64,000 nt of DNA from Chrysophaeum taylorii (Eukaryota; Sar; Pelagophyceae; Pelagomonadales; Pelagomonadaceae). Position numbers and translations under genes: made by a program. Below the pieces are notes generated by a model. It saw only the letters and a program-made list of their open reading frames with translations. It was not told the origin of the DNA and did not search any database. Shown piece after piece: positions 3,580 through 22,887 of the stretch (position 1 is the stretch's first letter; each line of letters begins with the position of its first letter). Location of the stretch: positions 1 to 64,000 of the forward strand of contig JAQMWT010000523.1 of assembly GCA_029834535.1 (NCBI GenBank), in the 5' to 3' direction.

Positions 3580-3912
3580 TTTTGATGATATCTCGCTTCC
3601 CACCAAAGCGCGGGAGTGCATGATTGCCCCGCCTCCCTCCATTCCCCACCCCTCCCGCCCCCTCCCCTCCCCTCCTTTTAGAACGCCATCATCCTCTTCT
3701 TCCTCCCCGTGGGAGCACGGCCGCCGCCGCCGCCGCCGGGGGAAGCAAGCTCGTGTACAGACGCCACGTGCTCGACTGGGGCCCCCTCGAGAAGAATCGC
3801 CATCTTTTTGCCACCCCCGTACTTCTTCCTTTTCCAGGCCGAATCTGACATTTTTATTCAGGTACTTTTATCACATGTATACATTGTACTACTTACTACT
3901 ACGAAACATATT
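3580..3912. other. Short spacer, pyrimidine-rich
   Basis: C/T-rich stretch with CCGCCG and TCTTCTTCC runs between two plus-strand genes. The frame of the next gene stays open upstream of its first good methionine, but the sequence is low-complexity and is treated as 5' UTR. Confidence 0.5.
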
Positions 3913-5459: not shown

Positions 5460-6915
5460 TTAACGACGAAATTTTTTTTTTATTTATTTTATTTTATTTT
5501 ATTTCATGCACCCTTGTCTTCTTCGGTCCAAAGTGACTCAGGCAGATGCTTCTAAAATAAAAATTCGACTGCCTGGGGAGTGTGGTGGTGGGCGCAAAGG
5601 AAGTCCTGGGAAAGGGTTTTTGTGCGCAGAACTCTCCTCCCTCACCCTCTATTCGACGCGTGTAGGTGCGTGTGGCGCTCTGGGTGGACACCGAGTCCTT
5701 CATGAAGTTCTTCTTCTAATACTATTATTCTTGTTATTATAACCATTATTATGTCGGTTCATACTATACACCTCGGCGGCAATTTTTGTGCTCCTCCCAT
5801 GGAGGGTGCGGTTCCGGGCCCGTCTACCCAGGGGCGATTCCGCCAGTGGAGGACAGGCTCCATCTTCTTCTGGGTGCGGTTCCTTTCCACACGCACGCTA
5901 TCTGCTGTCAAGAGACATGTATGTGGCTCGCGCGCGCGATGACGATTTTCATTGTAGGACCACCGCGGTCGTCTGTGGTCTTTCCTTCTTTCTTTCTTTG
6001 ATCATTTACTCTGGTCGATTGAGCCTGGGATTCGCAAAACATAGTAATAATCGTGGGCGGCACGCAGTGCTACTATCCAAATGGTTTTTGTTTGTTTGCT
6101 TGTTTGTTTTGTTCCTCCTGAAGTGACGTGGGCGAGTAGTAAAGCAAACCTCGCCTGGTTTTTTTTGGACACAACATGCGATGGGCAGATCCCTTTCCCA
6201 CCTTTTTACGGGCTTGGATTGCCCCTTCTCCCTGAGTGGTAGCGGCTTCGTGGCCGCCCTGGCTCTGAAACCAAATCCCAAACTTTTTGTTTTTTCAAGC
6301 CCCAAACAGCCTGTCCCCATGCGCCTTCACCATATGTTTTTTTTCTGCTTCCGTCTCCCCCCTCCATCTCTTTCTCCCTTCCTGCTTGCTTTTTCCGCCC
6401 ACGTCGTTCTGAACCAAGCTCCTTGCGCCCTCGCAATTCGCGCTCTTTTCGCATTGCCCTTCTGCTTCGTCTTCTCCTACCTTTCTCTCTTTTTCTTGTT
6501 TGCTCTGCTTCCTTTTTTGTTGTCCTCACCCTTCTTTTCCCTCTCCTGTCTCTCGTGCTTGCTTCTACTGTCCTCTTTGCGCTTTGTTGCTTTCTTCTTC
6601 GCCGTCCTCTGCGATCGCCCCTGGTCTTTTCTTCATTCTCTTTCTCCCTCCCTCTCTCCTTCTGCAGTCTTCCATTTTGGCTCTTCAAGCCCGGGAGTTG
6701 CTTGGTATGGAATGGGTGTTCCGGCTTTCGTTGGGCGACGCCTCAGCTTGCTATGTAGCAGCATCCATCTTCGCTCGACATTTCACGCGTTGCGTCAACC
6801 TCCTGCCTTACCAGTGCCGCGGGCTTGGATTTCTCCATGCACTTTAGGTGCTTAATGCGGCGACGGCGGCCGTGGCGGCTCTGCCTCCGAATCATGTCTC
6901 AACAACTCTTCTTAA
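5460..6915. other. Gene-poor spacer left of the copia insertion
   Basis: A/T runs follow the LRRC47 stop, then mixed sequence, then a long polypyrimidine stretch (about 6290-6680). The open frames over it (for example 6181-6855) are low-complexity Phe/Leu/Ser runs without recognisable domains. Confidence 0.5.
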
Positions 6916-6920
6916 GTCAC
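6916..6920. repeat. Target-site duplication (GTCAC), left
   Basis: GTCAC directly precedes the left LTR and recurs directly after the right LTR (19398-19402). Five bases is the usual Ty1/copia duplication length. Confidence 0.85.
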
Positions 6921-7324
6921 TGGAGAGATTTGACCCTCTCCGGGTACATGGTAGAGACTGCGTGCAGTCTTAGGCGTGTACAGACCATTCCGCTTGTCAC
7001 ATGCTACTACACAAGGTAGGGATTTAAGCCCTAACTCCTTAAGGACATTAGGTCCCATAGAAGCGTTTACACTGACAACGAGGAACGAAGTCCCTGTTAA
7101 TTAAACAGAAAACCCCGTACCTGACGGTACGCACCTGGAGGCCTACTCCATGTTGGAAAAGAGCTTCAGAAAGAGTCAGTGGGTTCTTCATAGTCATGAA
7201 AATATATAATTGCGGAAGGGTAAGGAAGGAAGGAGGGAAAGCCGTATTACGGAGAGAAAACCCTCGTGTAGAGATAGGTGTGAAATGTTCCAGTGTCGCA
7301 CACATAATAGTGTAGCTCTCTGGA
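6921..7324 (-). repeat. 3' LTR of the copia element
   Basis: 404 bp, nearly identical to 19001-19397. Plus-strand ends are TGGAGAG... and ...CTCTCTGGA, that is, sense TCCAGAGAG...CTCTCCA, ending in CA but starting TC rather than TG. A short purine tract (sense GAGGGGG) abuts it at 7325, as expected for second-strand priming. Confidence 0.9.
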
Positions 7325-10300
7325 CCCCCTCAACGTGTGGAAACGGTTTATGCATTTCAGACGTTCTTGAGGCGGAACTTGTGCAATATACATGAGAACA
7401 GTGAACAATGGAACAAACAACAACAGAACAGGACAAATTAATTATGATGTCGAGCGTGTTGTGATGTTACGCAAAGAAGCTGTATCGGTATCCACAACAT
7501 CAGATGTGTGGTCCAATTCATCTTCGCTATTATCGTCCAGTTCCTTTAACTCTGGAGAAGACGAATTATGATCATCAGAGGATAGGTCGTTAGCAGTGTT
7601 GGTATTGTGCGTAGTCATTGCATCACTCAAGGTGACATGACAGACGAAAGGAAAGACATAGCAGCATCTGGTGTAAGAGCGTGTAGATCCATGCAGAATA
7701 GAAATGAAAGAACAGCGATCATGTGCATCAGACATTGAATTGTGGGACGTGATGTCGTTGTGGGTGGAGTAGGTGAGGTATTTTGGTGATGAATTTTGAG
7801 GAGGTGTTGTATGAGTGTGGTGTGTGATCAGGTTTTAGTGTACATATGTGTGGGTGTCTAACCATAGCTTATGTTGAGATCCTGTGTAGTTGGTGTTTTG
7901 TGTTGGGGTTGGTTGTGTGTGGTTGTATTGTGGATGTGTTGTTTTAGTGGTCTGTTGATGTGTGTGTGGTTGTTAGTGGTGTGGGTGTGTGTTGTTTTGT
8001 TGGTAGTAGTTTCATTTGTTTTTATTGTTTGGTGGGTGTGTTTGGAGTTGTTGTTGGTTGTTTGTGTGTTGATGGTTACGGTTATGTTAACTATCCATTG
8101 GTGAGGAATTGGGGAGTTAGGAGAGTAGGAGATCTACGGATTAGCTGTGTGGGAGAGAGTTGATGAGCTGCTGCGTCAATTGTTGAAAAACTCGATGAGC
8201 CTCATTATAAGTATCTGTTAAAGGGGGCGGCGTGGTGCTGGGGGTGGTCAAGGGTAACAGACTAGGGGCAGTTTAGGGTGGAGAGTTTGGTTGTTGGGGG
8301 GTGGGTTTGGGGAGCTGCCATAGCTGCGATAAGCGACTGAGAAATGATCGGGGGACAATACAGCCGAGGGGCGCGATTATGATTCCTGGGTGCAAATGCC
8401 CCCAAATCTGCAAAGACTTGCCAACGATTTTGTCTACCAAGACCCATGCTTGATGTTCTCGATCACTTGCGTGTTTAAATTTTCGTCCCTTCTCTTGCAT
8501 CTGTGTGAGTGCTGACTTTATTGCCAGCGCTAGTTGTTGTCTCGCCCATCAACTGTGTTCGGTAATTAAGTGGAGACTCGGATAAAGACCGAACCCTTCT
8601 TTAATTAATTTGGTATACCGATTCGCCGTATTGCGTTTGAAAGGGCTTTATCTGGCGTGGGTTCTCGAGCGGTGATTGTCGATCGCGCTGCTGCAAAGAG
8701 GTGAAGCCAGCACTGGGGTCCTTATGGGTGTGGAAGGGTGGGGGTCTGATGTCAAACTTGAGGTGGAAGGTTCGATTTAGAAGTATTGGGAGGTGTGGTG
8801 TGTGAACGACATCGGGGGGTAGGTTAGTTAAGGGGAACGGATAGGTGAGACTCTTGGGGATGTTTGGGGGGACGACTGAGTGTGAGAGAGTGGCGAGGGA
8901 AGGAGGAGTTACAACTGTCATCAATGGTTGAGTTGGGTTGTGTGTTTGGTATCTGGTGATGGGTAGCGGGTGGGCGATTAGTCGATCGGTGAGACATCTT
9001 CAGAAGACGTATGATCTGAAAAGACATCATATGTCCGAAGGGTAGCCACCTGGATTAGCACATTTTTTAAGGCAGTTTGCTGTCAAGTGATAGTTGACGA
9101 AAAAAATATTTAAGCATTGGCGGTAACGTCTCGGAAGAAGTTACGTCAAATTGGTGGGAAACATCATTAACGAAGCGTTCGACAAGCACGTTATTAGCTC
9201 ATCAGGGTTGGTCACTATACATTTTATCTTCAACAGACTGTAACAAAGACCAAGCTGCTACAGAATCTCAAGATTTACACTCGAAATAAGGGCAGCTGAA
9301 GTAAGAGCATGGCGTTATCGTCAAGGTTAACAATGACTTTAGGGGCAGATCAACTTTAAAGGGATGTTGCGTCTGCATGTTCGTCGTTTGCCTCTTTGTG
9401 AGCTGTGTTAATTATGCCAATTGACTTTCCAAGGCGGAGGATTATAGCTCTTGTGTGGGCAGCTGGATCATTGAAACAAGAGAGTTGGAAGGGATGCTGA
9501 CTGTTGCGAATTAAAGCTATCCCTGGTGTGACATTGCACATCACACAAATCAACAATAAGAAAGGCGCGGTACGTCAAAGCAGTGCGATGCATGTTGCTC
9601 AGACGCGAGATGATCCTCATATTTGGCGAATCCTGTCAGTGTTCATCTTCATACAGATGATGAGCACGCTGGTGTGCCCGGCATCTCAGTTTTTTTTATT
9701 GTGAGCACTTTGTACAGTCACATGTACTTTGACAACCCCTTTAATGGGTGGGAAAGCGAACAGATGAAGGCGTATCCCTTCATTAGGAGATATAGCGGGG
9801 CGTTCCGATGCGCTTTGCTTTGAGGCACAGCAATGAACTGGGTACTGGACGTTATCTACAAACTCTGTCTGTTGTGCTTCCATAAGCAGCTGCTGCAAAA
9901 GACTTATCCAGCACTGGGGATCCTTATGTTGCGGAATGTGAAAATGGTGGCGAAGAACCAAGAGCAGTAACGTTCCCGGCATCATCGCCAGTAACGTCAA
10001 ACTGCAGTGTTTGAGCAGGAAATGCACTCAGACTTCGCTGCGTGCGATTTAGACTGTTGTTGGACAGTTGCCTGGCTGGGCGCCTTGGGCGTCACGGGCG
10101 TAGATTGATGTCCTTGAGCCACCGACAAATAGGTGATGTGATGCTTTCCGATTAATGGGAACTAGTCGTGTAGGGTGCAACGCTAATGGAGTTAGCTAGT
10201 TAGAGCATTAAAGGTGGGGATAGTGACAGTGCACCACCGCGACCGACCACGGTTCAGGTAGAGTGGCGTCGACTCGCAGCATCTTTGTTTTTAGTGGGAT

Positions 10301-10432: not shown

Positions 10433-11404
10433 TTAACCATCTTGTTGAGCTATGGGTTGTTGTAAGCCGAGTAACGTGCGAAATCTGCTGAAGAGCGGAG
10501 CTCCAAAGGGTTTCGTAAATCCATCGGCGATATTATGGGTACCGGGAACATGATGTAGACGTATGCGTTTTAACTGTGCGTAGTCGCGTATACGGAACCA
10601 GCGTGTGCTGATAGCTTTAGCCTTAGTCGCGCTGTCGGGATTATTAGATAGATGAATAGCAGAGGCCGAATCTCCAAGTATAGGACTGTTACGTATGAAC
10701 GACATGTCCGATGGGAGGGGATTGTCGTGAGCATCATAATCTAGTAGCAGGTCTTTCCTGAAGGTTGGCGAAGATAGAAGTGAGGATTTAACGAATGCCA
10801 TTTCCGTTAGCAATTTGCGTAACCAGACCACATCATCGGCGCACATATTAAGGGCGATAAGTTCACTCTCATGCGTAGAAGTAGCTGTAATAGGCTGCAG
10901 CTTAGACTTCCAAGTGATGAGAGAACCAAACAAAAAGATAGCGTAACCGGTTGTAGATTTGCGGTCTTGTTCATAAGAGGGCGCATTATCGGCATCAACG
11001 AATGCGACCAGTGGATCAAAATTACCTGAATTAACTTGTTCTTTAGTGTAGTCCAACATGGTTGCCATGTCAGTACGATTACCGATAAGAAGTCGAAGAT
11101 GGTCCATTAGAGCGGAAGAACCAGAGTGGTACAGGAGGCGAAGATTACGATTTTCGGGCTTGCGCAAGTAGCGGAGCGTTCCTGTTAGTACTTGAACATG
11201 TAGAAATGCTGGATTATGCATTCCTCGAGAGCAACGACTAAGACTTTGTGATAGATCGGGGCGACAGGCCAATTGACAAACGTGAGCTTGCCGAGTAGAG
11301 TAGAGAAGGGCATGAAGGATGAACTTGTCCATATCAGAAGATGGCTCTCCAGTTTTATACGTGGTTGATGGTGACATCGGTGTGGAAGTGGGACGTAGCT
11401 GCAT
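10433..11404 (-). CDS. RNase H domain of copia pol
   Basis: A 323-residue open frame with the copia RNase H signature: VAFVDADNAP (first Asp), TSTHESELIALN (Glu), DDVVWLRKLL, and HHVPGTHNIADGFTKP near the C-terminus. The N-terminal part (RPTSTPMSP ... LYSTRQAHVCQLACRPDLSQ ... LTGTLRYLRKPEN) is the usual RT-RNase H connection. Upstream RT sequence is in another frame and holds a stop, so this copy cannot make an intact RT-RNase H without recoding. The enzyme degrades the RNA of RNA-DNA hybrids during reverse transcription. Confidence 0.85.
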   Translation of the reverse strand: MQLRPTSTPMSPSTTYKTGEPSSDMDKFILHALLYSTRQAHVCQLACRPDLSQSLSRCSRGMHNPAFLHVQVLTGTLRYLRKPENRNLRLLYHSGSSALMDHLRLLIGNRTDMATMLDYTKEQVNSGNFDPLVAFVDADNAPSYEQDRKSTTGYAIFLFGSLITWKSKLQPITATSTHESELIALNMCADDVVWLRKLLTEMAFVKSSLLSSPTFRKDLLLDYDAHDNPLPSDMSFIRNSPILGDSASAIHLSNNPDSATKAKAISTRWFRIRDYAQLKRIRLHHVPGTHNIADGFTKPFGAPLFSRFRTLLGLQQPIAQQDG

Positions 11405-12649
11405 TAAAATGGGTACTCTTCGAACAATGCGTCAAGTTTAGCCTGACAGTCCAGTGATATAGAGCCATCAGTTGTACGCGTTATGCGCATGCCTAGGAGA
11501 GTTTTCCTTTTTCAGGGCTTGCTGGAACTCACGACGTAGAGTTTCCGAAGTACAAGTAATGACGACGTCGTCTACTGAGAGCGTGCAAATTAGAAATGTA
11601 GCGTCAGCTTGGACTTTAGCGTAAATGCATGTGTCTGTTCGAAATCGTGCGTAGCCTTATGAATCAAAGAAGCCGTTTATGGTTTGATTCCAAAGGGCAG
11701 GGCTCTGACGCAATCCATAGAGAGATTTAAGTAGCTTTGGGAGACGGCGGCCTTGGTATTTAGTATCTTCGGGATCGAGAAGGCAAATGCCTTGTGGCAG
11801 TTTGACATAGACATGAGAATCGATGGGAGCTTGAACAAAAGCGTTAGGACTTGAACAAAAGTTTAGGGAAGTCGACATGGTAGACGGAAGTCGCAGATGA
11901 GCTGCTAGCGCCAAAACACAACGGATGCCGGTAAGCTGTGCCATAGGGCTGAATGTGTTGAAGAAATCGGTGCCCAGAGAGGCTAAGAATCCTCGTAGGA
12001 CCAGGCGTGCTTTATGTTTAACGCACTGACCAGCAGCGTTGGTTTTTATACGTAGGACGAGACGGGTGTCAATAGGCTTTGAGTTGACCATTGGCAGCGC
12101 TAGTTTAAAGCAGCCAAACTTAACAATGTCAAAAATCTCTTTGGAGATGGCAGTAACATAAGCTTTGCGATCAGCGTCTGTGAGACCTTTGAGGCAGTTC
12201 AACTCATATTCATCAATTTTGATATCTTTGGCTTGAATCTTGTATTCGTCCGAACCAACCGTGCTGGGGTCATGAGTCGTCGTCAAATGAGTAATTGCGT
12301 AAGAAGCGACATTATCGGGCAGAGGAGCGTGATCGGGATCTTCGACGAGTTGAACGACTAGTAGAGGAGCATCACCAAGGTGGACCTCAACGTAATGCGA
12401 TTGCACGGTGATATAGTCTTCGATGGCGGAGAGATGAGGCTCGGAGGCACCATAAGAAGCGTCATTATGATCCAAAATGGAGTGGGGTGTGAACAAAGCA
12501 TAAACATATTGAGCGGGAGGAACTTGAAAGGCGTGAGCATGTTCAGAAATTAAATGAACGCGAGCTTGAGGAAGGTGAAAGTCTGCAGGGTTGACGTCGT
12601 CGAAGTGAACATGAGGAGTATCAGGCGATGGGTGGCTATGGCTCCTATG
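11405..12649 (-). pseudogene. Reverse transcriptase of copia pol, interrupted
   Basis: Copia RT in pieces. 11657-12649 is open in the integrase frame and contains the N-terminal RT blocks (KAYVTAISKEIFDI, KHKARLVLRGF, TFSPMAQLTGIRCVLALAAH, SLYGLRQSPALWNQ). A TAA at 11657 follows FFDS, after which the same frame continues through the catalytic block as LSVDDVVITC (VDD in place of YVDD). A frame change near 11500 leads into MRITRTTDGSISLDCQAKL, and another joins RNase H. The polymerase would be non-functional as read. It should copy element RNA into cDNA. Confidence 0.8.
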
Positions 12650-14749
12650 TCACATAACTGAAGAGGACTGTGAGATCGCTTGGTGCACATGGTGATGAAG
12701 GGATGGTGTAAATTCCCCCTCTGGAGGTATAGCCGTCCAGTGGATGCCATGAGCGAGATGAAGGGAGTGGAGGGTGGGGTCGCAGAACATTATGTACTGC
12801 TTGGAGAGGTCATACTTGAAGTCGGCAAGCGCACTACCAGCTTGTTTATAAGCGGCAACAGTAGGCGAAGCAATACGAGTAAGAACATCCTTGAGATTGG
12901 TTTTGCGACGAGGCTGAGGGTGATGAGGACCACGGGTGAGACGGAGGACATCCTGGGAATAGAGAGACCGATAAGATGGTAAAAGTGGCAGAGTGTCGGA
13001 AGACACTTCAGATGTAGGTGTGGTGGCGGAAGTAGCGGGTGCAGGAGCAGCTGGAGCACATGCGGGAGCGGGAGAGGGAGCATGGAGATGAGAAGAGAGA
13101 GTCCCCCTCTCATGGTCAGTGTCGGTAGGCATAGCATTCCCCCTCTGCGCCGCATCATTGGGGGTGCTGTGAACAGAGAAGGGAATGTCGGGTGAAGGTG
13201 CGGGAGGTGGATGCTGTTCATAATCAGGAGGAGATTTAGAAATAAGATGAGGAAAAGTCAATTTAGAGGAAACACGGACTTGACCGTTTTCAGGATTAAG
13301 GACAACATCGGCTAAATGATTAACATGGGGTGTTATTAAAGGGTTTATAACGTTAGCACCGCATAAGTAGATGTAGGGACGACATCGGGGTTCATATTTA
13401 TGAAATTCGCTAGGTTCCAAATGCAGATAACAAACAGAACCAAAAGCTTTGAGGTAGTCTTGTTGGGGAACATTACATTGGTCTAACAAAACTTGTTGGG
13501 GGCTTAGGACTTTATTGTAAATACGTTCAAGGGAAACGTAAGGGAGGAGACTATACGATTGGATAGCATGTATAACAGCCCACGGGTAGTGTGGTGCCGG
13601 ATCTGTTAGGGGGTGACCTTTATAGGATACATTAAGCATATGCCGGAGTCGTGTAGACGCGGCAGTGGCTATGTGACCAACAGCGGCTTCGACTTCATGA
13701 TTAAAGACATGTAAGTAAGGGGGGGGCGCGGACATATTAATACCATATTCCACACGGAAGGGGGTTGTGACATGCTGAGATAAATAGGGTTTAAAGGAAT
13801 CACAATAGATTTGTTTTGGTTGTACACGAACATAAGTAGAGCAAAAATTGCGGACAAACTCAAGGGCGTTACAAAATTCGCTGGAGTTAGGGCTACGACA
13901 AAAGTACACTAACAGAAATTTAGAAATGAGACACTTGAAAACAATGATATGTCGAAAGGATCCCCATTCCGAGAGCACAGATACGTAACCACCGTCACAA
14001 GCCCAGGCTTCACCAGGTTGAAAATTTTTTTTGAATGATGGTTGCTTGATAAGGTGGTGTGGATGAGGAAAGCGTTTTTTATGAATCGTACAATCCACAC
14101 AGAACTTACGGTAGGGTACGTCAGATGGGTGGTGTCCAGGACTGGCAATAACCTGAACAGCTTTTATGGCTTGAGAATCACTGGAATGGTGAATGTTGTG
14201 AAAATTGGTAGCTCGTTGTTGCGCATCTCGAAATGCGAGGGTGCCCCTGGCATGGACTTTCTTATCGAAGGGCGCATGCTTCTCATGGAGCTGTTTTGGC
14301 GTTATAAGGGGTATTTGGTTTTCTTTAGTAGGAGATGATATATCTGCGGAAGCAAACATTTTGTCGATAAATTCGAGACGATTTTCCTGAGGGTAGAAGA
14401 CAAAAGAATCGTGAAATACAGGAGAGGTATAGGAAACCTGTGCTTGTACTAGACGACGCGTGTCTTGATTTTCATTATTATTATGGTATGCTTGGCAAAG
14501 CCAAAGAAAACCGGTAACTGCTTCGAGAGAAGCAGTCTTATCGATTCCGGCATCGTGTGTTAGGAGGGTGTAGGTTTCGCCAAAAGCATTTATATGTGCC
14601 TGGTATTTAGAAGAAGAGTTAGAAACTGTTATGTCTCCGCCTGTATGTCTTCCACCGGTGATGTAAATGATGGATGAAGTAGAGGATTTATTTAAGAATA
14701 ACCTGTGAGATGGTTGGTTAGATTCGATAGTTGTAATACGAAAGGACAC
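12650..14749 (-). CDS. Integrase region of copia pol
   Basis: A 699-residue open frame. An HHCC zinc-binding region is visible (HNIHHS ... FCVDCTIHK), then the DDE core: WACDGGYVSV (first Asp), IYCDSFKPYLSQHV (second Asp) and FNHEVEAAVGHIA (Glu). It is followed by a proline/serine-rich linker and the conserved lead-in to RT. Integrase inserts the cDNA into host DNA and leaves the 5-bp duplication. The frame overlaps the end of the methyltransferase ORF by 58 nt in a -1 relation; it stops at a TGA (12650), beyond which the same frame stays open into RT. Confidence 0.88.
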   Translation of the reverse strand: MSFRITTIESNQPSHRLFLNKSSTSSIIYITGGRHTGGDITVSNSSSKYQAHINAFGETYTLLTHDAGIDKTASLEAVTGFLWLCQAYHNNNENQDTRRLVQAQVSYTSPVFHDSFVFYPQENRLEFIDKMFASADISSPTKENQIPLITPKQLHEKHAPFDKKVHARGTLAFRDAQQRATNFHNIHHSSDSQAIKAVQVIASPGHHPSDVPYRKFCVDCTIHKKRFPHPHHLIKQPSFKKNFQPGEAWACDGGYVSVLSEWGSFRHIIVFKCLISKFLLVYFCRSPNSSEFCNALEFVRNFCSTYVRVQPKQIYCDSFKPYLSQHVTTPFRVEYGINMSAPPPYLHVFNHEVEAAVGHIATAASTRLRHMLNVSYKGHPLTDPAPHYPWAVIHAIQSYSLLPYVSLERIYNKVLSPQQVLLDQCNVPQQDYLKAFGSVCYLHLEPSEFHKYEPRCRPYIYLCGANVINPLITPHVNHLADVVLNPENGQVRVSSKLTFPHLISKSPPDYEQHPPPAPSPDIPFSVHSTPNDAAQRGNAMPTDTDHERGTLSSHLHAPSPAPACAPAAPAPATSATTPTSEVSSDTLPLLPSYRSLYSQDVLRLTRGPHHPQPRRKTNLKDVLTRIASPTVAAYKQAGSALADFKYDLSKQYIMFCDPTLHSLHLAHGIHWTAIPPEGEFTPSLHHHVHQAISQSSSVM

Positions 14750-15774
14750 AGGTAATGTGATGGATTTAGGGATAATCGTCCCATAATATTATAGAGGAGC
14801 ACAAAAGCTTTGAGTTCAATAGGGGATCTCATGCAAGCAAGTGGTTTTCTTGAATTAGTCAAGAATCCCAGGCGAAAGTTAGAAATGCCCTTCATTTCAT
14901 CTTGACTGGGATGTTCGACTGTTTTATTAGAGTGTAGACGAAGGAACAGCATAGTTAAGGTTTCAAGCTCAGTCACAGTTAAGCGCACGGATCCTGTACG
15001 ACTGAAAATATTGTAGGTTTTAGGTGTGGACACGAATGGTATGTCAGGAAAGACCTGCGTCCAAGGTTCGTCGACTATTAACTTGCGACTGATGGAATTA
15101 GCGTGGTCTGCAATATCCAGAAAAGAAGTGACTCGTTTATTAGGCCATGAAAGCAGATCAAGAGGGCCGGTGTTATATTTGCGTGCGACGAGGATCCATC
15201 TTTCTCTGGCTTGATAATCTCCACATAGATAGCATGGAAATCGGTCACATATGTCCACCGTATAGTGCATCGTTGAGAAGATGAGATTAGCAACTCGTAT
15301 ATGATCTTCATACGATGCGGAGTGTGGTGGAGTCATTTCCATGAAGAGAACAAGCGGCTTTAAAAGCTCAAGTACACTTAGAGCACTCGGGAACAAGGAA
15401 TCATCCATATCGCGCTCGAAGGTGGAAATGGATCTCCCATTGATTATGTTGCGATTTGTGCATGGTGATGTCAATTCCACTATGTCAGTGTAGTATCGTG
15501 CACGTTCAACGTCCGATGCTCGATGGAGATATGTCAAAAACTTAGGTAGGGATGGGAAAACTTCGATGGAATTACCAAAACGTCTTCGTAGCATGCGCGT
15601 GATATTGTAGTCGCTCTCAACAAGAACTTTAACGTTGATGTTGATTTGCAAGTCATTAGAAGCGCAAGCCAAGAATGCAGGAGTGGACATCCCAGAGCAA
15701 AGTAAAGTTACTGTAGGTGTTCGTGGGCTAGGAGATGAAGTTACTGTATGGAGCAAACGTGTTGTAACCTTGCG
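14692..15774 (-). CDS. Cytosine-C5 DNA methyltransferase domain inside the copia element
   Basis: An open frame between protease and integrase that reads as a complete C5 methyltransferase. Numbering from the first possible start (15756): motif I TLLCSGMSTPAFLA (17-30, SAM site), acidic E47 after the second strand (motif II), motif IV SPC with catalytic Cys99, motif VI-like FMEM with E140, motif VIII QARER (182-186), target-domain region about 195-250, motif IX RLTVTELETL (258-267) and motif X-like RLGFLTNSRKPLA (295-307). These enzymes transfer methyl from SAM to carbon 5 of cytosine. It is in frame with gag-protease but separated by a TGA (15775), has no ATG near its start, and overlaps integrase in another frame. 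It is not a usual copia domain; acquisition by the element is inferred. Divergences are PCT for PCQ and MEM for ENV. Confidence 0.8.
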   Translation of the reverse strand, partial: RKVTTRLLHTVTSSPSPRTPTVTLLCSGMSTPAFLACASNDLQININVKVLVESDYNITRMLRRRFGNSIEVFPSLPKFLTYLHRASDVERARYYTDIVELTSPCTNRNIINGRSISTFERDMDDSLFPSALSVLELLKPLVLFMEMTPPHSASYEDHIRVANLIFSTMHYTVDICDRFPCYLCGDYQARERWILVARKYNTGPLDLLSWPNKRVTSFLDIADHANSISRKLIVDEPWTQVFPDIPFVSTPKTYNIFSRTGSVRLTVTELETLTMLFLRLHSNKTVEHPSQDEMKGISNFRLGFLTNSRKPLACMRSPIELKAFVLLYNIMGRLSLNPSHYLCPFVLQLSNLTNHLTGYS

Positions 15775-18234
15775 TCATACAGGAGGTGGGAAATATTTGC
15801 GTATGTAAGGCAGCTGCGAATGCATTGACTCCAGGATGGTTTTAAGCCATGGGACGTAAATTACTCGTTCCATGAGGGTGGAATATAGTTTGAGCATTTC
15901 GCGTTGTTCATTAAAAGCACATAGCCTGAACTGTAGTGAGCGAAGTTCCATTTTATGCGCTTTTGCTTGTTGTAGCGAGCAAATTGGTAGAGTTGGCAAC
16001 AGGTTACTGAGTCTAAACAAAGTAATCTTGACATTATCATCAATTTTACTCTGGATAGATGATTGTCCTTTAAATTCAACTCCAGAAAGATGTATACCAA
16101 GTTTATCTTCTCCCCATTGAGTCATACTGATGATGTGCAGATCGGGATCGTTATGGTCGTTTTGCTTGGGTAGAAAAAGCGCAACGTCTAGCCTTACATA
16201 TCCCACATTTGGATGCTTTGGGAGAGCGGGAATGACGGTCCTTATAATCATAGCATGTGTGATTCTCTGCGTATCCGTAGCAGTCTGGATAACAGGTGAT
16301 AAGGACTCGAGTAGCTTTACGATGTGGATAGGATCAGCATAACGTTTAAAGTTAATTACATGTTGAGAAGCACATGTGTCAGCATATCCTGGCGTAGTCA
16401 TTAGCGGCAAATTGCACTCGTTGTACAGTTTAAGCATTGTTGCATAACAGGCATGTGTTGAGCTTTGACCAAACACGTACTGTGTCATGAAACTTTGCGT
16501 TTGTTCGGAAGGCACAACGACGAGTGTAAAACCAGTATTTAATGTTGGTAGCAACATAGGGGGATCTGTACCATCTTCATTATCTTCATTGGGTAGATTA
16601 CTGGGGAGCTCAGAGTGCGAGGAAGTTTCCCGAGCTTGACGACGAACGATAGCATTCTGAGCTTTAGCATTTATGTGCTGCAATAGCGGCCGAGGGATGT
16701 TATCGATTTCATCATCTTTAATGGACAGAAAAGTGTGGAACATTTTCTCTGTATCAGCAGTCCCCCTCTGCTCCGCATCACTGGGGGACGCTTCAGGGGC
16801 AGATGTTTCAGTTTGATACTTTTCTTCTGAAACAAGAGATTCCTTATCGGCTTCTAAGAGGTTCACAATGGTATTGGACATAGTATCAACTCGAGATAAG
16901 TAGAGATGAACTTGGGTGGCTTCGTCAGGATCTAAGGACTGTGTCGAAGCTTGAGAAGCGGTTGTCCAGAGGGTACTCAATAAGCTTTTCATTTCCTCCT
17001 GTACCATTTTAGAGTCGGTAGAAGGGTTGGGATTCGCTTCCTGTAATTTACCAAACAGGTGGCGAAGACGATCAACTGGATAAGTAGCCCGGTCCATAAG
17101 AGACATATTAGAGCGTGCATTACGGTTAGAGGAAGATGAGTAGACAGGACGATCGAAGCTGGTACCTTTGACGTTATAATTTGAGGGTGGACGATAGTAC
17201 GACGTGTCACGGGGTAAAATTGTCGATGCTTTGTCTTTTGCATTACGAAGCTTACGAGCGTTGAAGCCAGACTGTCCAGCTACAGTGGCTAACAACGAGT
17301 AAGCGTTGTTTAGAGAGTCGTGGGATTGATGAATAGTATCCATCAATAATACCTTAGGTGGCTTGGTAGCGGTAGTACCAGGGATGTAAGGGATCCAGGA
17401 AGCGGGTTTATCCAAGCGTCGGTTAGAGGAAAACTTTGCTTCATTGTATATCTTTAACAAGAATTCCAATAGTGGAAGAACGTCGTTAGGATCAACTAGC
17501 TTTAACAATTCGGGATCGTGACTCGAGTTGTTACCAGAGCGTGTCTCGTAGAGTTTACACCATTCCAGTAAAGATGGAGAATAGCGCTCACGATCCGAGG
17601 GATTAGCATATAGACGGTAGATCTCCTCGTGAGCTTTAAGAGTGATTATGGAGTTATTAAATTGGATTGGTGCTTCATCATTATTTAATTGCTTTGCCAG
17701 AGACTGAAAGGCAAGGAGTTGTTCGACAAAAACATGGGCATACCAATTAACATTTAGAGACATTCGATTAAACTGAGATTTAAGCTCAGTTGCATCTGTA
17801 CAAGACACTGTCTCATAGCAATGGTAAGCTAAAAGCATTACAGCACGTAATTTATTGGGATGTGCAGTAATTGCACAAATTTTCTTTAGTTGAGGCCACA
17901 TAGCGAGAGCGGGCTTTTCCTGGGACTCCAAGTTAAAGAATGTGTACAAGAAACCAGCATAAGTTTCGTAGTGTTTGATCCAGTCGGCATTAGAGAGGCC
18001 TGTAAAGGATATGTTAGTTAAAGATGAATCATACACAATTGATTTAGGGAATCGGGTGTCTAATAAAGTGAGGACACGTTTGACATCCTTATTTAATTCA
18101 GGACGAACGAGATTATACGACTCTTGGTAGGAGAGTCGTTCAAGATTATTACGGACATCAACTGTTAGTTGATGGGAAGAGTTGACGTGCCAAGTCTTTA
18201 AATGTTCGGGCAGGGCATCTTCATCAGGTAAGTT
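15775..18234 (-). CDS. Gag-protease of the copia element
   Basis: Open frame of about 820 codons. The N-terminal half is Gag-like, helix-rich and alignable with the second element at 61794 (ADW...YA.FL.T.FN, KPALA.WP, CYETVS, NWYAHV, CKLYETRS). No CCHC zinc knuckle was seen. The C-terminal third contains an aspartic-protease block, GYADTCASQHV, followed by SPVIQTATDTQRITH and NVGYVRLDVALFL. The protease should process the polyprotein; the usual D-S/T-G is D-T-C here. The frame starts right after a TAA with no ATG until well inside the conserved region, so it either depends on read-through from the small upstream ORF or is inactivated. Confidence 0.8.
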   Translation of the reverse strand, partial: NLPDEDALPEHLKTWHVNSSHQLTVDVRNNLERLSYQESYNLVRPELNKDVKRVLTLLDTRFPKSIVYDSSLTNISFTGLSNADWIKHYETYAGFLYTFFNLESQEKPALAMWPQLKKICAITAHPNKLRAVMLLAYHCYETVSCTDATELKSQFNRMSLNVNWYAHVFVEQLLAFQSLAKQLNNDEAPIQFNNSIITLKAHEEIYRLYANPSDRERYSPSLLEWCKLYETRSGNNSSHDPELLKLVDPNDVLPLLEFLLKIYNEAKFSSNRRLDKPASWIPYIPGTTATKPPKVLLMDTIHQSHDSLNNAYSLLATVAGQSGFNARKLRNAKDKASTILPRDTSYYRPPSNYNVKGTSFDRPVYSSSSNRNARSNMSLMDRATYPVDRLRHLFGKLQEANPNPSTDSKMVQEEMKSLLSTLWTTASQASTQSLDPDEATQVHLYLSRVDTMSNTIVNLLEADKESLVSEEKYQTETSAPEASPSDAEQRGTADTEKMFHTFLSIKDDEIDNIPRPLLQHINAKAQNAIVRRQARETSSHSELPSNLPNEDNEDGTDPPMLLPTLNTGFTLVVVPSEQTQSFMTQYVFGQSSTHACYATMLKLYNECNLPLMTTPGYADTCASQHVINFKRYADPIHIVKLLESLSPVIQTATDTQRITHAMIIRTVIPALPKHPNVGYVRLDVALFLPKQNDHNDPDLHIISMTQWGEDKLGIHLSGVEFKGQSSIQSKIDDNVKITLFRLSNLLPTLPICSLQQAKAHKMELRSLQFRLCAFNEQREMLKLYSTLMERVIYVPWLKTILESMHSQLPYIRKYFPPPV

Positions 18235-18516
18235 TTAATCGTTTACTTGTTCAGCTTTCCATTGAGCGAAGATGATATCAACTTCTTGTTCAAGAAGCTG
18301 ATTATATTCCGGAGCATTCCGGGTGTAAGCTTCATATGAATCGAAGCAGAATAACGCGTCCACATATGGACTTGTCATATGCCTGCGAAGCACCTCAATT
18401 TGCAAGCTCACCTTGGTTGAGTTGTCTTGGAAACGCAATCCTGCGTTAATCTTATCAACGAGGATTTGTTCTTGTTTGTAGATATCCGTGGTGGATATTG
18501 GTTTTTGTTTTGACAT
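18235..18516 (-). CDS. Small 5' gag ORF of the copia element
   Basis: A 93-residue frame starting at ATG (MSKQKPIS) and ending at TAA, in the same frame as the following gag-protease. Its segment ALFCFDSYEAYTRNAPEY matches ALFECDSYEAYTRSCADY in the second element at about 61590-61640, so it is genuine element coding sequence. Probably the N-terminus of Gag. Confidence 0.7.
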   Translation of the reverse strand: MSKQKPISTTDIYKQEQILVDKINAGLRFQDNSTKVSLQIEVLRRHMTSPYVDALFCFDSYEAYTRNAPEYNQLLEQEVDIIFAQWKAEQVND

Positions 18517-19000
18517 GATTGTGACCTATTAAGAGATAGGTTATAGGATTGATAGACATATTCAACACATAAGAATGAGGGGTTTCTCTAGTGCGGGTTC
18601 TATGTACAGTACGCTATTTTAAACGTGGGCTTATTGACAAGACCAAACAAATCAACATGCTATTTAAAACAGGGTGACTTGAGACTGTAGAATGGATTAG
18701 TTCTCGAGCAGTCAGTCCTTTGTTGGGGAATGGAGGGATAAACCCGTACAAGTTTCCGCGGCTTGTATAGGAAAAAATTTAATTTTATTGGTTATGCGAG
18801 TGCATGTGACCAGTGACCGACCCAACTCGGTCACAAACCAAATTAACTGGTGGGCACATACCGTCACACAACAAATATGTACAGTAAACCACCGCCAAAC
18901 ACATTGTCGCATTGTACTCGTGATCAGGCGTAAATTGATCACTCCATTTAAACGTACAACACAGTTGGGCTGACACACCTACGCATCTGGGCCCGTAACC
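18517..19000 (-). other. 5' leader of the copia element
   Basis: About 480 bp between the 5' LTR and the first ATG. The sense sequence directly inside the LTR is GGTTACGGGCCCAGATGCG, the expected primer-binding position; I could not assign it to a particular tRNA (3' end or internal half-tRNA). Confidence 0.5.
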
Positions 19001-19397
19001 TGGAGAGATTTGACCCTCTCCGGGTACATGGTAGAGACTGCGTGCAGTCTTAGGCGTGTACAGACCATTCCGCTTGTCACATGCTACTACACAAGGTAGG
19101 GATTTTGGCCCTAACTCCTTAAGGACATTAGCTCCCATAGAAGCGTTTACACTGACAACGAGGAACGAAGTCTCTGTTAATTAAACAGAAAACCCCGTAC
19201 CTGACGGTACGCACCTGGAGGCCTACTCCATGTTGGAAAAGAGCTTCAGATTGGGTTCTTCATAATCTGAGATAAAAGGGCGGAAGGGTAAGGAAGGAAA
19301 GGAGAGAGGGAAAGCCGTATTACGGAGAGAAAACCCTCGTGTAGAGATAGGTGTGAAATGTTCCAGTGTCGCACACATAGTAGTGTAGCTCTCTGGA
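19001..19397 (-). repeat. 5' LTR of the copia element
   Basis: 397 bp, the partner of 6921-7324. Differences are few substitutions (for example TTTTGG for TTTAAG) and small indels near 19250-19310. It should hold the element's promoter and polyadenylation signal. Confidence 0.9.
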
Positions 19398-19402
19398 GTC
19401 AC
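19398..19402. repeat. Target-site duplication (GTCAC), right
   Basis: Matches 6916-6920. Confidence 0.85.
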
Positions 19403-20043
19403 TATACGGGCGGGGTCACGGTTTGAACAAGGTTCTCGGCAAATCCCACTCGCTCACGAAAGTCGAGCTACTTCCTCGCCCAAGACCGTGGCAAATGGCG
19501 ACAGACAACGAACTCCCCCTCCATTTCCCTTTTACACACCACTGGGCCTGTGTCTAGTCTCTAGTCCCTTCACGCCAACAGCCAAGGCTTCGGCTTATTG
19601 GCTGCTCGAAAATCCCCAAAGAAATACCCGATGGGTGGCAGCGGTAGCGTTGACGGTCATGGCGGCACTACGTTCGAACCAAGTCTCAGCACCCTCTTTT
19701 GTTGCCTGCGTTCCTATTTTTTTTTCGTCGTCTCAACCAACTGCCAATTTTCATTTTCTTCCCTTTCTTCAAGTCAACGGTCATGGCTTCTCAAAAAAGA
19801 AGTTTGTCTACTTTTTTTTACACTCCTTTTCTTCTTTCCCTCATTCTTTCATTCTTTATTGTGTTATATCAGCGTTAGCACTTTGTTCGGAGATCTGGAA
19901 TGATTTTCAGTGCAGCTTCATTGTTTTGCGTTTAAAATGTAGCCGCATCACATTGTAGTACAGATATATGTGTTTATCTTTTATCTTTTTGATAAAGGTG
20001 CGTATCCGCGCTTATCGGTCTGGGCTGCCACGACACCCAAGTT
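19403..20043. other. Spacer upstream of the channel gene
   Basis: Sequence right of the copia insertion, pyrimidine- and T-rich from 19690 to 19980. No supported gene; probably includes promoter and 5' UTR of the potassium-channel gene. Confidence 0.4.
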
Positions 20044-22887
20044 ATGAGCAGGCGCAAGTCGGCGTTCATTTTTCAGCTCCCGACGACCTCCATAATATCG
20101 GCAACCACGTCGCCACTCGTGGTTATGTCGCAGCCGGCACACGAGTCCATCTACGCCATAGCGCTCATGGTGACGTGCATGTTGGCCATCTTCTCGCTTG
20201 GGCCTCGGCTGGCGTTTGGCCGGGGCAATAGTTTGCGGGATCCGATGCTCGAGGTGTTGTTCTGGCTCCAGCAAGCGTCGAGCGTCGTCTTCATGATCAT
20301 CTACTTGCCAGGGGCATACGTGTTGCATCAGACGAGGCGCCAGGAACAACGAGTACACGCGGAGGTCCAGAAGCGACTTAAGTCGTCGGACTCGCCTCTG
20401 ACGGCTCGCAAGGCGTCGAGGATCTTTCAACGCGTGCTGGAGACAGGCGTGCCGAGATCGCTCGAACTGCATCATCCGATGCACTTATGGGTTCAGGTCG
20501 GGGCCGCGTGCATTCTCCCGATTGCGTGCGATATGTTGTCGCTCGTGCGCAAGTGGCGCCGAATCAAGTGGGTGGGATGTCTCCGGCTCTTGCATTTGTG
20601 CGGATTTCGGCGCCTCTTTTCTGTCCTCGAGGCCAATCTGGTCATTCCGCACTACGTGCCGCCGATGCTGCGGAACGTTCTCTTACTCACTTTCGTCACT
20701 CACCACGCGGCGTGCGGGTTGTGGCTGACGGCGCGGGCGAGGGACTTCTCCGCCACGTCGTGGGTCGGTTATCACAGACCAGACATCATTGACTCGTCGG
20801 CGAACACGCAGTACGTGACTTCGTGCTACTTCGCCGTGGCCACGTTGAGCACGGTGGGCTACGGAGACATCTATCCCGTCAACATAAGCGAGTGCACGTT
20901 TGTGATGACCTACGTGTTCATCAATATTTTTCTGCTCGCCAACATCGTGGGCGACATCAGCGCACTCGCAGCGATGAAGGACACCGATCTCGCCGCGAAA
21001 CGCAATCGAATTTCGCGATTCGAGCGCATGCTCGATCGCGAACGGATCAGCGCCGACGTCGCGTCTGCCACCCTCGAGTACCTTAGACTGGGGCTGAGCA
21101 TGCCGGACGTCGAGATTGACATGAACTCGCTCCCGGCGTCCGTACGCGTGCGAATCCGGGAGGAGCGGTTCGGAGTGATTCTCCGGTCGCTGCCATTGTT
21201 TCGCGGCCTGTCCGCGCGGTTTATCGGTCGATGCGTCGCGCGCGTCGTCGAAGACGCCTACGTCAAAGACCAGGACCTCGTCCGACGTGGCGACATGGCC
21301 TCACGATTGTGCGTCATCGTCGATGGCATCGCGAGTATCGAAATGGTCCCCGACCAGGGTGCCGACGAAGGCACGGGGCGCGGCACGCTGTCGACCACCG
21401 ACGACTCCCTGTCGTGGCGCGCCGACGACGACTCGCGCTCGTGCTCGGTTGCGCTGTTGCAGCCGGGGGCTGTCTTCGGTGCCGAGAGCTTTGTGTGTAA
21501 AATGCACGAGCCGTGGACTGTCGTCGGCCGCACGCTGCTTCGCGTCATCTCGCTCGACGAAAACGATAGCCGCGATTTCGAGCAGTCTTTCCCGACGGAT
21601 TGGTTCCGCCTCCGGAGAAATCTGCACGAATCGATCGTTCAAATGCGCGACGCGACCCAGCAGCTTGCCGACAGCCTGAACCTCAGCAATGCCGAGACTG
21701 CGCCCACAAACCACGTCAAGCTCAGCAAGCTCAACATGAGCCTCGAGCTGCCGTCGACGCTGAAATATCCGTCGTGCATGGGCACCTTCTCGCAGATTGC
21801 AGCGGAGGTCGCATCGAACATCGTGCGCGTCACGGACAAAGCTTCCCACTCGCTCGCGTCAACGTTTTGTCATTACGCGAGCGCCGGCGACGACTTCGAG
21901 CTCAGGCACCTCCTCGCAACGGTCTCGATCAAGGACGTCGGGGCTGACTACGACGGCCGCACGCCCCTCCACCTGAGCGCGGCCTGCGGTCATGTCGACT
22001 GCACTCGCACGCTCATCGAAGCTGGCGCTCCCACCAGCCCCTGCGACCGGTTCGGTCGCACGCCGCTGGTCGAGGCTGTTCGCGCGGGCCATGCAGAGGT
22101 CATCGCGTTTCTTAGAGCCCACGGCGGCAAGCTGTCGCTCCCCGAACACGAACTCGGCCAAATCCTCTGCCACGCCGCGCACGAGGGCGACATCGTCCTC
22201 ATCCGAAACTTTTTGTGAGTTGTCCGAATGTCGTCGTCAGCACCAGCACTACATATTATGTTCACCCACCACTGCAGGGATGCGGGCGCGAATCCAAACG
22301 CCGTCGACTACGATAACCGCAGCGCGCTCATGCTGGCGGCCTCGGCGGGCAACGTCGCCATATGTCGCTACCTCCTCGAGCGAGGCGCGGATCCTCTCGC
22401 CAAGGACCGCTGGGGCCACGTCGCCGCGGACGAGGCCGTATCCAACGGCCACACGGGCGCGCTCTACGACTTGCTTGTCGACAAAGCGAACTGGCGCGTC
22501 GAAAACGGATGCGACGACGAGAATAGTTATGCATCGTCGTGGCGCGTGCGCAGCACTATAAATTCTGATTCCTCGAGTGCCGAGCGATCGTCGTCCTCCT
22601 CGTCGTTTCGGCAGCTGTCGACTGCCAGAGGACACACAACCTACACGGCGTTGGACAGAAGAATCGTCGTGCCGCTCTCAGAAAATTCACAAGAAGAGGC
22701 ATGCGGTCGTAGCAGTGGCGGCGGCGGCGGCGGCGGTGACAGGCCGCCGTCTGCGAGCAGCGTGCGCCCACCCTCAAAAACAACGGAGGAAGAAGAGAGG
22801 AGCATTTGTTGTCGAGCTAGCGAGCGAACACAGAAGAGGAAGAATGTGAGCCCCCCCCCTTCCGACGTGTACACGATGCGCACCTAA
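20044..22887 (+). CDS. Voltage-gated K+ channel with CNBD and ankyrin repeats
   Basis: Plant Shaker/AKT-like layout. Six hydrophobic segments (first near residue 40), an Arg/Lys-rich S4 (RKWRRIKWVGCLRLLHLCGFRR), pore with selectivity filter TVGYGD (about residue 273), S6, a C-linker, a cyclic-nucleotide-binding-like domain (about 385-500, FRGLS...RRGD...LQPGAVFG) and ankyrin repeats from about 610 (DYDGRTPLHLSAACGHVDC, DRFGRTPLVEAVRAGH, DNRSALMLAASAGNVAI). It should conduct K+ at a membrane, with gating influenced by voltage and perhaps ligand. A 63-nt intron (22215-22277, GTGAGT...CACTGCAG) splits an ankyrin repeat; joining gives ...RNFL|DAGANPNA in frame. The C-terminus is Ser/Gly-rich. About 926 residues. 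Confidence 0.88.
22215..22277 (+). other. 63-nt intron in the K+ channel gene
   Basis: Donor GTGAGT, acceptor CACTGCAG, phase 2. Without removal the frame ends at TGA (22216); with removal the ankyrin array continues without a gap. Confidence 0.88.

What the first reader, a model, noticed from the sequence alone, without database searches (positions are those of the whole stretch)
14692..15774. A copia retrotransposon carrying its own cytosine-C5 DNA methyltransferase
Seen: between the protease block and the integrase DDE core is a ~350-codon frame with C5-methyltransferase motifs in order and with correct spacing (I LLCSGMSTP, acidic E47, IV SPC, VI FMEM, VIII QARER, IX RLTVTELETL, X-like end). 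Known: Ty1/copia elements normally have nothing but a short linker here. From memory, retrotransposons with captured cytosine methyltransferases have been reported in dinoflagellates and a charophyte alga; I recall none in an element like this one. Inference: the element could methylate its own or host DNA, to hide from or tune silencing, or to mark its insertions.
Basis: partly seen in the sequence, partly recalled or inferred. Interest (0 to 1): 0.92.

Follow-up and report, generated by a model that had tools for sequence, protein, structure and literature searches.

The report
Copia retrotransposon lineage carrying DNA methyltransferase
Jumping genes of the copia type in this alga carry, inside their own replication polyprotein, an enzyme domain of the kind that methylates cytosine in DNA; it is conserved in many copies and in related elements from elsewhere, although the copy in this window is broken.

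Summary
The frame at 14692-15774 (minus strand) is a real C5-cytosine methyltransferase (MTase) domain inside a 12.5-kb Ty1/copia element with LTRs and a 5-bp target-site duplication. Sequence links it through MMETSP relatives to Pfam DNA_methylase; the predicted fold matches DNMT1, M.HhaI and DNMT2.
Corrections: the full domain is about 560 aa. The window copy lost them in a ~570-nt deletion and is otherwise broken.
At least 105 places in this 70.8-Mb algal genome match. The MTase core is under purifying selection (dN/dS about 0.08), no weaker than on the integrase and gag-PR segments. It is the first domain of Pol, behind an in-frame UGA in 45 of 48 copies examined (UGA-CGC, or the known leaky UGA-CUA). 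A further copia family keeps MTase-INT-RT in one 1952-aa frame; a transcript and a contig from elsewhere show the same order. A Ty3/gypsy family in this genome carries another MTase-like domain.
DNMT-bearing LINE, DIRS and Gypsy elements are published; my searches found no described copia case. Most likely role: methylating the element's own cDNA. Activity is untested.

The parts
19398..19402 (.). target-site duplication at the 5' side (GTCAC on +, GTGAC in element orientation)
   Evidence: read directly; identical to 6916-6920
19001..19397 (-). 5' LTR
   Evidence: 92.9% identical to 6921-7324 over 410 aligned columns; ends set by the TSD and primer-binding site
18987..19000 (-). primer-binding site, half-tRNA (initiator Met) type as in Drosophila copia (recalled): GGTTACGGGCCCAG
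   Evidence: the tRNA segment GCTGGGCCCATAACCC (recalled) occurs 7 times in the genome, 0 for the reversed control; one mismatch to it
18235..18516 (-). N-terminal part of gag, 93 codons from the ATG, closed by an in-frame TAA in this copy
   Evidence: the next frame starts at 18234
15775..18234 (-). gag-protease frame (819 aa), protease-like DTCAS near its C-terminal part
   Evidence: no Pfam hit, so the protease assignment rests on the DTCAS motif and position (recalled)
15775..15777 (-). in-frame UGA (followed by CGC) between gag-PR and the MTase
   Evidence: TGA in 29 of 30 loci, in frame with motif I in 28 of 30; in 16 of 17 further loci and L074
14692..15774 (-). C5-MTase domain, motifs I to VIII plus part of the target-recognition region; frame broken at its 3' end; motifs IX-X lost from this copy
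12650..14788 (-). remnant of the MTase target-recognition region followed by integrase (zinc finger, DDE core, SH3)
   Evidence: SH3_retrovirus 5.6e-5, rve 0.0012, both below cut-off; aligns with the INT of P0012, 2e-24; zinc finger read by eye
11657..12649 (-). copia-type reverse transcriptase
   Evidence: PF07727 RVT_2 5.3e-22
10433..11431 (-). RT end and RNase H of the copia type
   Evidence: frame; RNase H assigned by its STHESEL block (recalled), no RNase H Pfam hit
7325..7331 (-). polypurine tract GAGGGGG
   Evidence: read directly next to the 3' LTR
6921..7324 (-). 3' LTR
6916..6920 (.). target-site duplication at the 3' side

Best explanation
The window holds a decayed member of an old lineage of Ty1/copia retrotransposons whose Pol polyprotein starts with a full (about 560-aa) C5-cytosine methyltransferase, placed between protease and integrase. 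Shown by sequence: element anatomy, homology and fold of the MTase, conservation of its catalytic motifs and of the order MTase-INT-RT behind a protease-like motif across families and sources, purifying selection, and the conserved in-frame UGA. Inferred: ribosomes read through the UGA at low frequency, so a little Gag-PR-MTase-INT-RT is made beside much Gag-PR; the protease frees the MTase (or an MTase-INT fusion), which is carried in the particle with RT and INT and methylates cytosines in the newly made double-stranded cDNA, perhaps also target DNA at the integration site. A new copy would then enter the genome already marked. The host has a DNMT5-type gene whose product could maintain such marks, which would make the insertion look like host DNA, or quiet, and so cheaper for host and element to keep. 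My odds: anatomy and homology about 0.95, an active DNA methylase about 0.6, the self-marking role as told about 0.35.
For: Homology. Fold: the model of the window frame has the class I MTase order (pLDDT 55), and the 50 Foldseek rows listed against PDB (of 146 with E up to 0.001) are C5-MTase family proteins or their complexes, best E 7.7e-7. Copies: 105 of 105 scored places match the relative P0001 (1056 first-look candidates). Motifs in 41 open copies of 50 taken: PC of motif IV in 39, its Cys in 40, EMTPP in 41, GDYQxRERW in 41, although the two main clusters share only about 50% of residues (the filter for the 30 near copies itself asked for QARERW, but each of the 9 dropped rows also had a stop). 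Selection: dN/dS 0.082 in 27 copies, 0.05-0.07 in the eight most distant pairs (dS 0.65-0.75); with anchored segments MTase I-VIII 0.075 (27 of 30 copies), IX-X 0.121 (22), INT 0.117 (8), gag-PR 0.152 (21). Recoding: in-frame TGA in 28 of 30, 16 of 17 and L074; TGA CTA in 8 of 9 second-cluster loci (ninth not read) and L074. UGA-C and UGA CUA are described as leaky in PMC11166343 (passages). Order in one open frame: L072, 1952 aa, protease-like motif, MTase, INT, RVT_2; L074, 1691 aa, MTase-INT-RVT_2; L112, from another source, 2100 aa; P0012 MTase-INT. Host DNMT5 type: PF00145 plus SNF2 in L092.
Against: No enzymatic data. No clear mutational footprint of CpG methylation: C-to-T columns at CG 50 of 201 against 162 of 861 at other C sites, Fisher p 0.062 (p 0.25 for singletons), and about the same as transitions at A/T sites, 361 per 1471. 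No stable RNA structure at the UGA (z above 0 for the four stretches folded from it). Motif VI reads EMT rather than ENV (recalled consensus), family A mostly has SPC for the usual PPC, and family B (L072) has an altered motif VIII. Integrase Pfam matches are weak, below cut-off, throughout, and L074's MTase gives no direct PF00145 hit. Structure models are low-confidence (pLDDT 55 and 48). The DNMT sub-clade could not be settled.
Confidence: 0.6

Rival explanations
1. The MTase acts on RNA, as DNMT2-type enzymes do: it methylates the packaged genomic RNA or the tRNA primer, not the cDNA.
For: The fold search also returns DNMT2 structures. PMC5890265 suggests RNA as a target for the LINE-borne enzyme, which did not methylate DNA de novo in yeast (discussion section). 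No clear CpG footprint.
Against: The domain has a large region between motifs VIII and IX, the usual place of DNA target recognition (the role is recalled), and sits next to integrase, which handles double-stranded cDNA.
Confidence: 0.15
2. The domain is kept for DNA binding, as a targeting or tethering module for the adjacent integrase, and catalysis is secondary or absent in some families.
For: Position next to integrase in every copia arrangement read through (L072, L074, L112, P0012). Family A mostly has SPC, family B an altered motif VIII. Low-confidence structure.
Against: Catalytic Cys in 40 of 41, Glu in 41 of 41 and the Arg motif in 41 of 41 open copies despite 50% divergence between the main clusters (with the filter told above). 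A binding-only module would not need them.
Confidence: 0.12
3. A recent transduction or hitch-hiking host gene, without function for the element.
For: Retroelements do pick up sequences; inserted copies decay (dN/dS 0.47 in the 5 closest pairs).
Against: dN/dS 0.05-0.08 at larger distances; same order in the copia families and in a transcript and a contig from elsewhere.
Confidence: 0.03
4. Assembly chimera or a nested host gene inside an ordinary copia element.
For: None found. L050 showed how neighbours can mislead (a weakly matched gypsy-type integrase beside a copia MTase).
Against: At least 105 places, single open frames across MTase, INT and RT, and independent source material.
Confidence: 0.01

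Closest known systems
KnitGypsy-Dnmt3 of Klebsormidium nitens (PMC5890265)
   Same: LTR retrotransposon with a C5-MTase inside the Pol polyprotein, conserved key residues, purifying selection (Ka/Ks below 0.2)
   Different: Ty3/gypsy, not Ty1/copia, in a charophyte; MTase of the Dnmt3 clade, while the clade here is unresolved; no UGA boundary is mentioned in the passages that I read
SymbioDIRS-Dnmt3 and SymbioLINE-Dnmt of Symbiodinium (PMC5890265)
   Same: DNMT-bearing retrotransposons in high copy number in an alga; the DIRS enzyme was shown there to methylate CG de novo in yeast
   Different: tyrosine-recombinase DIRS and LINE elements; that paper states that the Symbiodinium Copia elements lack a DNMT domain
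'LTR Copia' DNMT3 mention in PMC12344493
   Same: names LTR Copia elements as DNMT3 carriers
   Different: one sentence that cites the 2018 paper, which says Gypsy; no copia element is described in the section and passages that I read, so it may be a slip or an undescribed case
Dam-type adenine methylases of DIRS elements (mentioned in PMC5890265)
   Same: methyltransferase domain in a retrotransposon
   Different: adenine methylase, structurally unrelated to C5-MTases
Copia-like CoDi elements of diatoms (PMC9998398, PMC3145265)
   Same: copia elements of photosynthetic stramenopiles
   Different: described as targets of host methylation; no MTase mentioned in the passages that I read

Membership tests
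Ty1/copia (Pseudoviridae) | copia-type RT (RVT_2) | tested here: met
   window 5.3e-22; L072 1.6e-38; L074 7.7e-42
Ty1/copia (Pseudoviridae) | integrase upstream of RT in Pol | tested here: met
   frame order in the window, single frames L072 and L074; the rve matches are below the Pfam cut-off
Ty1/copia (Pseudoviridae) | LTRs with short target-site duplication | tested here: met
   (5-bp GTGAC)
Ty1/copia (Pseudoviridae) | gag and aspartic protease | tested here: inconclusive
   gag-PR frame with DTCAS; no Pfam match
C5-cytosine methyltransferase family (PF00145) | sequence membership | tested here: met
   not directly for the window frame; through P0001-P0009 and profile-profile E 1.1e-29; family B frames L042 and L047 directly above the cut-off
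C5-cytosine methyltransferase family (PF00145) | catalytic motifs IV, VI, VIII | tested here: met
   41 open copies; 10 aligned proteins, invariant P104 C105 E146 Q188 R190 R192; family B has an altered VIII
C5-cytosine methyltransferase family (PF00145) | motifs IX and X | tested here: met
   met in the family (27 of 30 loci) and in P0006 (below NCBIfam's cut-off); not met in the window copy itself
C5-cytosine methyltransferase family (PF00145) | class I SAM-MTase fold | tested here: met
   (low-confidence model, consistent hits)
C5-cytosine methyltransferase family (PF00145) | transfers methyl to C5 of cytosine | not testable with these tools
   needs an assay
DNMT3 (clade reported in LTR and DIRS elements) | phylogenetic placement within DNMT3 | not tested
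   no DNMT3 reference sequences were used; the tree with two host DNMTs is unresolved
Stop-codon readthrough (UGA-C type) gag-pol expression | conserved in-frame leaky stop with coding sequence on both sides | tested here: met
Stop-codon readthrough (UGA-C type) gag-pol expression | downstream stimulatory RNA structure | tested here: not met
   four stretches from the stop folded, z 0.34 to 0.74, and one upstream, z 0.60; not every readthrough site has one
Stop-codon readthrough (UGA-C type) gag-pol expression | readthrough product made | not testable with these tools
   needs a reporter or proteomics

The most novel reading that the evidence does not exclude
A previously undescribed, ancient clade of copia retrotransposons, spread through marine microbial eukaryotes, in which a C5-MTase physically joined to integrase is a fixed part of the transposition machine: it methylates the cDNA or the target site during integration, is dosed by UGA readthrough, and, with several such families plus an independently equipped Ty3/gypsy family in one genome, makes mobile elements a main source of cytosine-methylating enzymes in that cell.
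Probability: 0.4. Interest if true: 0.9.

Novelty: new variant of a known kind. Interest (0 to 1): 0.78.

Why it matters
Cytosine methylation is the classic weapon of hosts against transposons; elements that carry the weapon themselves are published only from a few LINE, DIRS and Gypsy cases, as far as my searches went. Here the domain is old, fixed at the start of Pol, kept by selection no weaker than that on integrase, and present in at least 105 places (about a thousand first-look candidates) in a small genome that also has a host DNMT5-type gene. That gives a tractable system for asking what a retrotransposon gains by methylating: the enzyme can be expressed alone, native methylation can be read over many dated copies, and MTase-bearing elements can be compared with others in one cell.

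Tried and rejected
Direct Pfam and NCBIfam scans of the window frame: no hit; the link needed relatives. PDB sequence search with P0002: nothing relevant; with alignment A2: C5-MTases at E 0.057 and up, not significant.

First taken as a Gypsy family: family B (L033-L050). L050 holds a weakly matched gypsy-type integrase beside the MTase, but L072 shows that the family is copia, so that reading was dropped; my notebook entry holds the old reading, corrected.

Host species: the small-subunit rRNA search did not complete. A chlorophyll-binding protein frame (PF00504) points to a photosynthetic host; I infer a red-plastid alga of the stramenopile type from a plastid-signal-like sequence read by eye, no more.

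Virus origin of the MTase: no relative in viral contigs by one pattern-based scan. Tree of MTases with host DNMT2- and DNMT5-like proteins: long branches, unresolved for family B and gypsy C. CpG deamination footprint: marginal. RNA structure at the UGA: none. Second structure model (P0006): pLDDT 48, same class of hits.

A positional dN/dS comparison without re-alignment gave no usable INT set and was replaced. hhalign of family A against family B on frames of one lineage each found only 25 columns (E 0.48); BLASTP of longer frames later gave 3e-11.

Literature: of ten searches, nine bore on this question (two of them returned nothing) and one on readthrough. None listed a paper that I could see to describe a copia element with a DNMT, apart from the sentence in PMC12344493; most listed papers were seen as listings only, and subscription journals and preprints are not held.
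Full report
WHAT IS THERE. The window (contig C523, 1-64000, of an unnamed 70.8-Mb assembly of 697 contigs) carries a Ty1/copia element on the minus strand. Its LTRs lie at 19001-19397 and 6921-7324 (92.9% identical over 410 aligned columns), flanked by the 5-bp duplication GTGAC, with a half-tRNA type primer-binding site next to the 5' LTR and a polypurine tract next to the 3' LTR. The frames are gag-PR 15775-18234, the MTase frame 14692-15774, INT 12650-14788, RT 11657-12649 and RNase H 10433-11431. RT matches RVT_2 at 5.3e-22; INT matches SH3_retrovirus and rve below their cut-offs. Protease and RNase H are assigned by short motifs (recalled), not by Pfam.

IS THE FRAME A C5-MTASE? Pfam does not see it directly. 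A search of 5.8 billion proteins gives two relatives, P0001 (5.4e-74, 42% over 92% of the frame) and P0002 (9.5e-18), both from MMETSP. P0002 matches PF00145 at 1.2e-10 and P0001 at 4.4e-4, below its cut-off. Searching with their alignment brings P0003-P0009, all seven with a PF00145 match (six above the cut-off, P0008 below). Columns invariant in the alignment of ten proteins include Pro104-Cys105 (motif IV), Glu146 (VI) and Gln188, Arg190, Arg192 (VIII). The AlphaFold2 model (pLDDT 55) has the alternating strand-helix order of a class I MTase, and the 50 Foldseek rows listed are DNMT1, MET1, DIM2, M.HhaI, M.HaeIII, DNMT2 and other C5-MTases, alone or in complexes. Low confidence limits the model to fold recognition.

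This region is found at 94% identity or more, in a few loci over part of it, in 27 of 30 loci, at 42% with a stop in L025, and not in L001 (the window) or L029. Profile comparison with the P0006 clade covers motifs I to X (L003 22-574) over 495 columns (E 1.1e-29), and TIGR00675 matches P0006 through to motif X (69-530, 35.5 bits, below its curated cut-off). The window copy spans 1427 nt from MTase core to INT, against 1989-1999 nt in 14 of 23 copies measured. With its frame break at the end of the 360-codon frame, the TAA in gag and LTRs 7% apart, it is a dead copy.

THE FAMILY. The DNA search scored 40 copies over nearly the whole frame at 96-99% identity (307 first-look candidates). A protein search with P0001 scored 105 places, all matching (1056 first-look candidates), so the number is a lower bound. 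Of 50 MTase regions taken (30 near copies plus 20 chosen to include divergent ones), 41 are open over the part compared; 9 near copies were dropped, each with at least one stop in the frame followed. The filter for near copies also asked for QARERW. The 41 form clusters of 27, 10, 2, 1 and 1; the two main ones share about 50% of residues. Motif IV PC is kept in 39 of 41 (the Cys in 40), EMTPP in 41, GDYQxRERW in 41.

SELECTION. dN/dS is 0.082 for the 27-copy cluster and 0.147 for the 10-copy cluster; in the first it falls from 0.47 (5 pairs, dS below 0.02) to 0.07 (55 pairs, dS 0.2-0.5) and 0.05-0.07 in the eight most distant pairs, as expected when selection acts on replicating elements and inserted copies decay. 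With peptide-anchored segments in the same 30 loci: MTase I-VIII 0.075 (27 copies used), IX-X 0.121 (22), INT start 0.117 (8), gag-PR end 0.152 (21). Restricting to open copies lowers these values somewhat, for all segments alike; the INT sample is small.

IS IT THERE IN COPIES NOT CHOSEN BY THE MTASE? RT was used as bait (122 matches). From a roughly systematic sample of 20 places (two replaced by neighbours in the list because their contigs end) the stretch expected to hold the MTase was asked for and 19 were obtained. Twelve hold MTase sequence; seven hold no MTase, gag or INT sequence and are uninformative; none shows PR joined to INT without an MTase.

HOW POL IS MADE. gag-PR and MTase share one reading frame and are separated by a UGA. 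A TGA stands there in 29 of 30 near copies (L018 lacks it) and is in frame with motif I in 28 of 30 (in L004 it is out of frame), in 16 of 17 further loci (motif not found in L082) and in L074: 45 of 48 in frame. In 11 of the 30 the gag-PR frame is open to the edge of the locus right up to this stop, so it is not one stop among many. The next three bases are CGC (26 of 30) or CAC (3 of 30) in the window's cluster, CGC in 7 divergent relatives, CTA in 8 of 9 loci of the second cluster (the ninth not read) and ATG in the outlier L084, CTA in L074. UGA-C and above all UGA CUA are described as leaky in PMC11166343 (passages). Conservation of the stop across 50% divergence argues for programmed readthrough; no RNA structure was found at it. 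The MTase is thus the N-terminal domain of Pol.

OTHER FAMILIES IN THE SAME GENOME. A scan for PF00145 gave 124 matches. Those that I read (most of L033-L050) belong to a second copia family, B, whose copy L072 has one open frame of 1952 aa with a protease-like motif (LIDGGAS), MTase (PF00145 1.1e-7), INT (rve 0.006, below cut-off) and RT (RVT_2 1.6e-38). Its MTase-to-INT part aligns collinearly with family A (E 3e-11), although an earlier profile comparison missed this. L074, of the second cluster of family A, has MTase-INT-RT in one 1691-aa frame. A third kind, L051/L073, is Ty3/gypsy (RVT_1 1.2e-13, RT_RNaseH 1.6e-27, H2C2, Integrase_p58) with an MTase-like domain in the gag-PR frame ahead of RT (PF00145 23.8 bits in L051, 21.9 in the longer L073 frame, cut-off 22). 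The many matches confined to the first 50-80 profile positions may be this family; only this one was read. Host enzymes: a DNMT2-like gene (L031, PF00145; the DNMT2 label is by eye) and a DNMT5-type gene with PF00145 and SNF2 (L092).

ELSEWHERE. P0012, a 925-aa MMETSP transcript product, has MTase motifs (PF00145 2.2e-8) and an integrase core (rve 6.5e-5, below cut-off) in one frame; its integrase part aligns with the window's at 2e-24, and the whole aligns with L003 over 773 columns (E 1.7e-41). L112, a contig filed under a Muricauda MAG (NHBR02000125.1), has one 2100-aa frame with a protease-like motif, MTase motifs, INT (rve 2.8e-4) and copia RT (1.3e-5) and PF00145 (0.0011), these three all below cut-off; it aligns with L003 in two pieces at 1.6e-24 and 1.9e-23. 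A bacterium is an unlikely home and I infer a mis-binned eukaryotic contig. No relative was found in viral contigs. So the arrangement is probably older than this genome.

WHAT IT DOES. See the best explanation and rivals. The mutation spectrum does not help much: C-to-T changes are at 50 of 201 CG columns against 162 of 861 other C columns (p 0.062); CpG observed/expected is 0.89 in the element against 1.26-1.30 in two host stretches, but base composition differs too (45% against 59-63% GC).

LITERATURE. PMC5890265 (abstract, introduction, start of results, passages and discussion read) describes DNMTs in LINE and DIRS elements of Symbiodinium and in an LTR Gypsy element of Klebsormidium, de novo CG methylation by retrotransposon DNMTs in yeast, Ka/Ks below 0.2, and states that Symbiodinium Copia lacks a DNMT. 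PMC6338049 (passages) repeats Ty3/Gypsy and DIRS. PMC12344493 (section 5 and passages) names 'LTR Copia and DIRS' as previously reported. The passages that I saw of PMC9998398, PMC3145265, PMC12477816 and PMC11244446 mention no copia element with a C5-MTase. Other listed papers were seen only as search listings.

VERDICT. Real and better than reported as a family, worse as a copy. It is a new variant of a known kind: DNMT-bearing retrotransposons, now in Ty1/copia, with an old fixed position beside integrase and a conserved UGA in front.

Noticed in passing
L073 (G000:C235:17500-26400) and L051: A Ty3/gypsy family in the same genome carries an MTase-like domain (LFSGAGGSTLGLQ, SPPC) ahead of RT; probably an independent capture.
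   Followed up: partly
L072 (G000:C96:60000-69000): Second copia family with MTase-INT-RT in one open frame of 1952 aa; gag is in a separate, overlapping frame, so its gag-pol junction differs from the UGA of family A.
   Followed up: partly
window 61707-63003 (+): Gag-like frames resembling the gag of the element at 6.9-19.4 kb: another copia element may run off the right end of the window (similarity seen by eye, no Pfam hit).
   Followed up: no
window 19996-22218 (+): Host gene beside the insertion: ion channel with ankyrin repeats and a sub-cut-off cyclic-nucleotide-binding match.
   Followed up: no
L092 (G000:C621:15600-23400), 868-7125 (+): Host DNMT5-type protein in one 2086-codon frame, PF00145 plus SNF2.
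   Followed up: yes
L112 (NHBR02000125.1): A retrotransposon polyprotein in a contig filed as a Muricauda MAG, probably mis-binned eukaryotic DNA.
   Followed up: partly
window 18987-19000: Primer-binding site of the half-tRNA initiator-Met type known from Drosophila copia (recalled), with one mismatch.
   Followed up: partly
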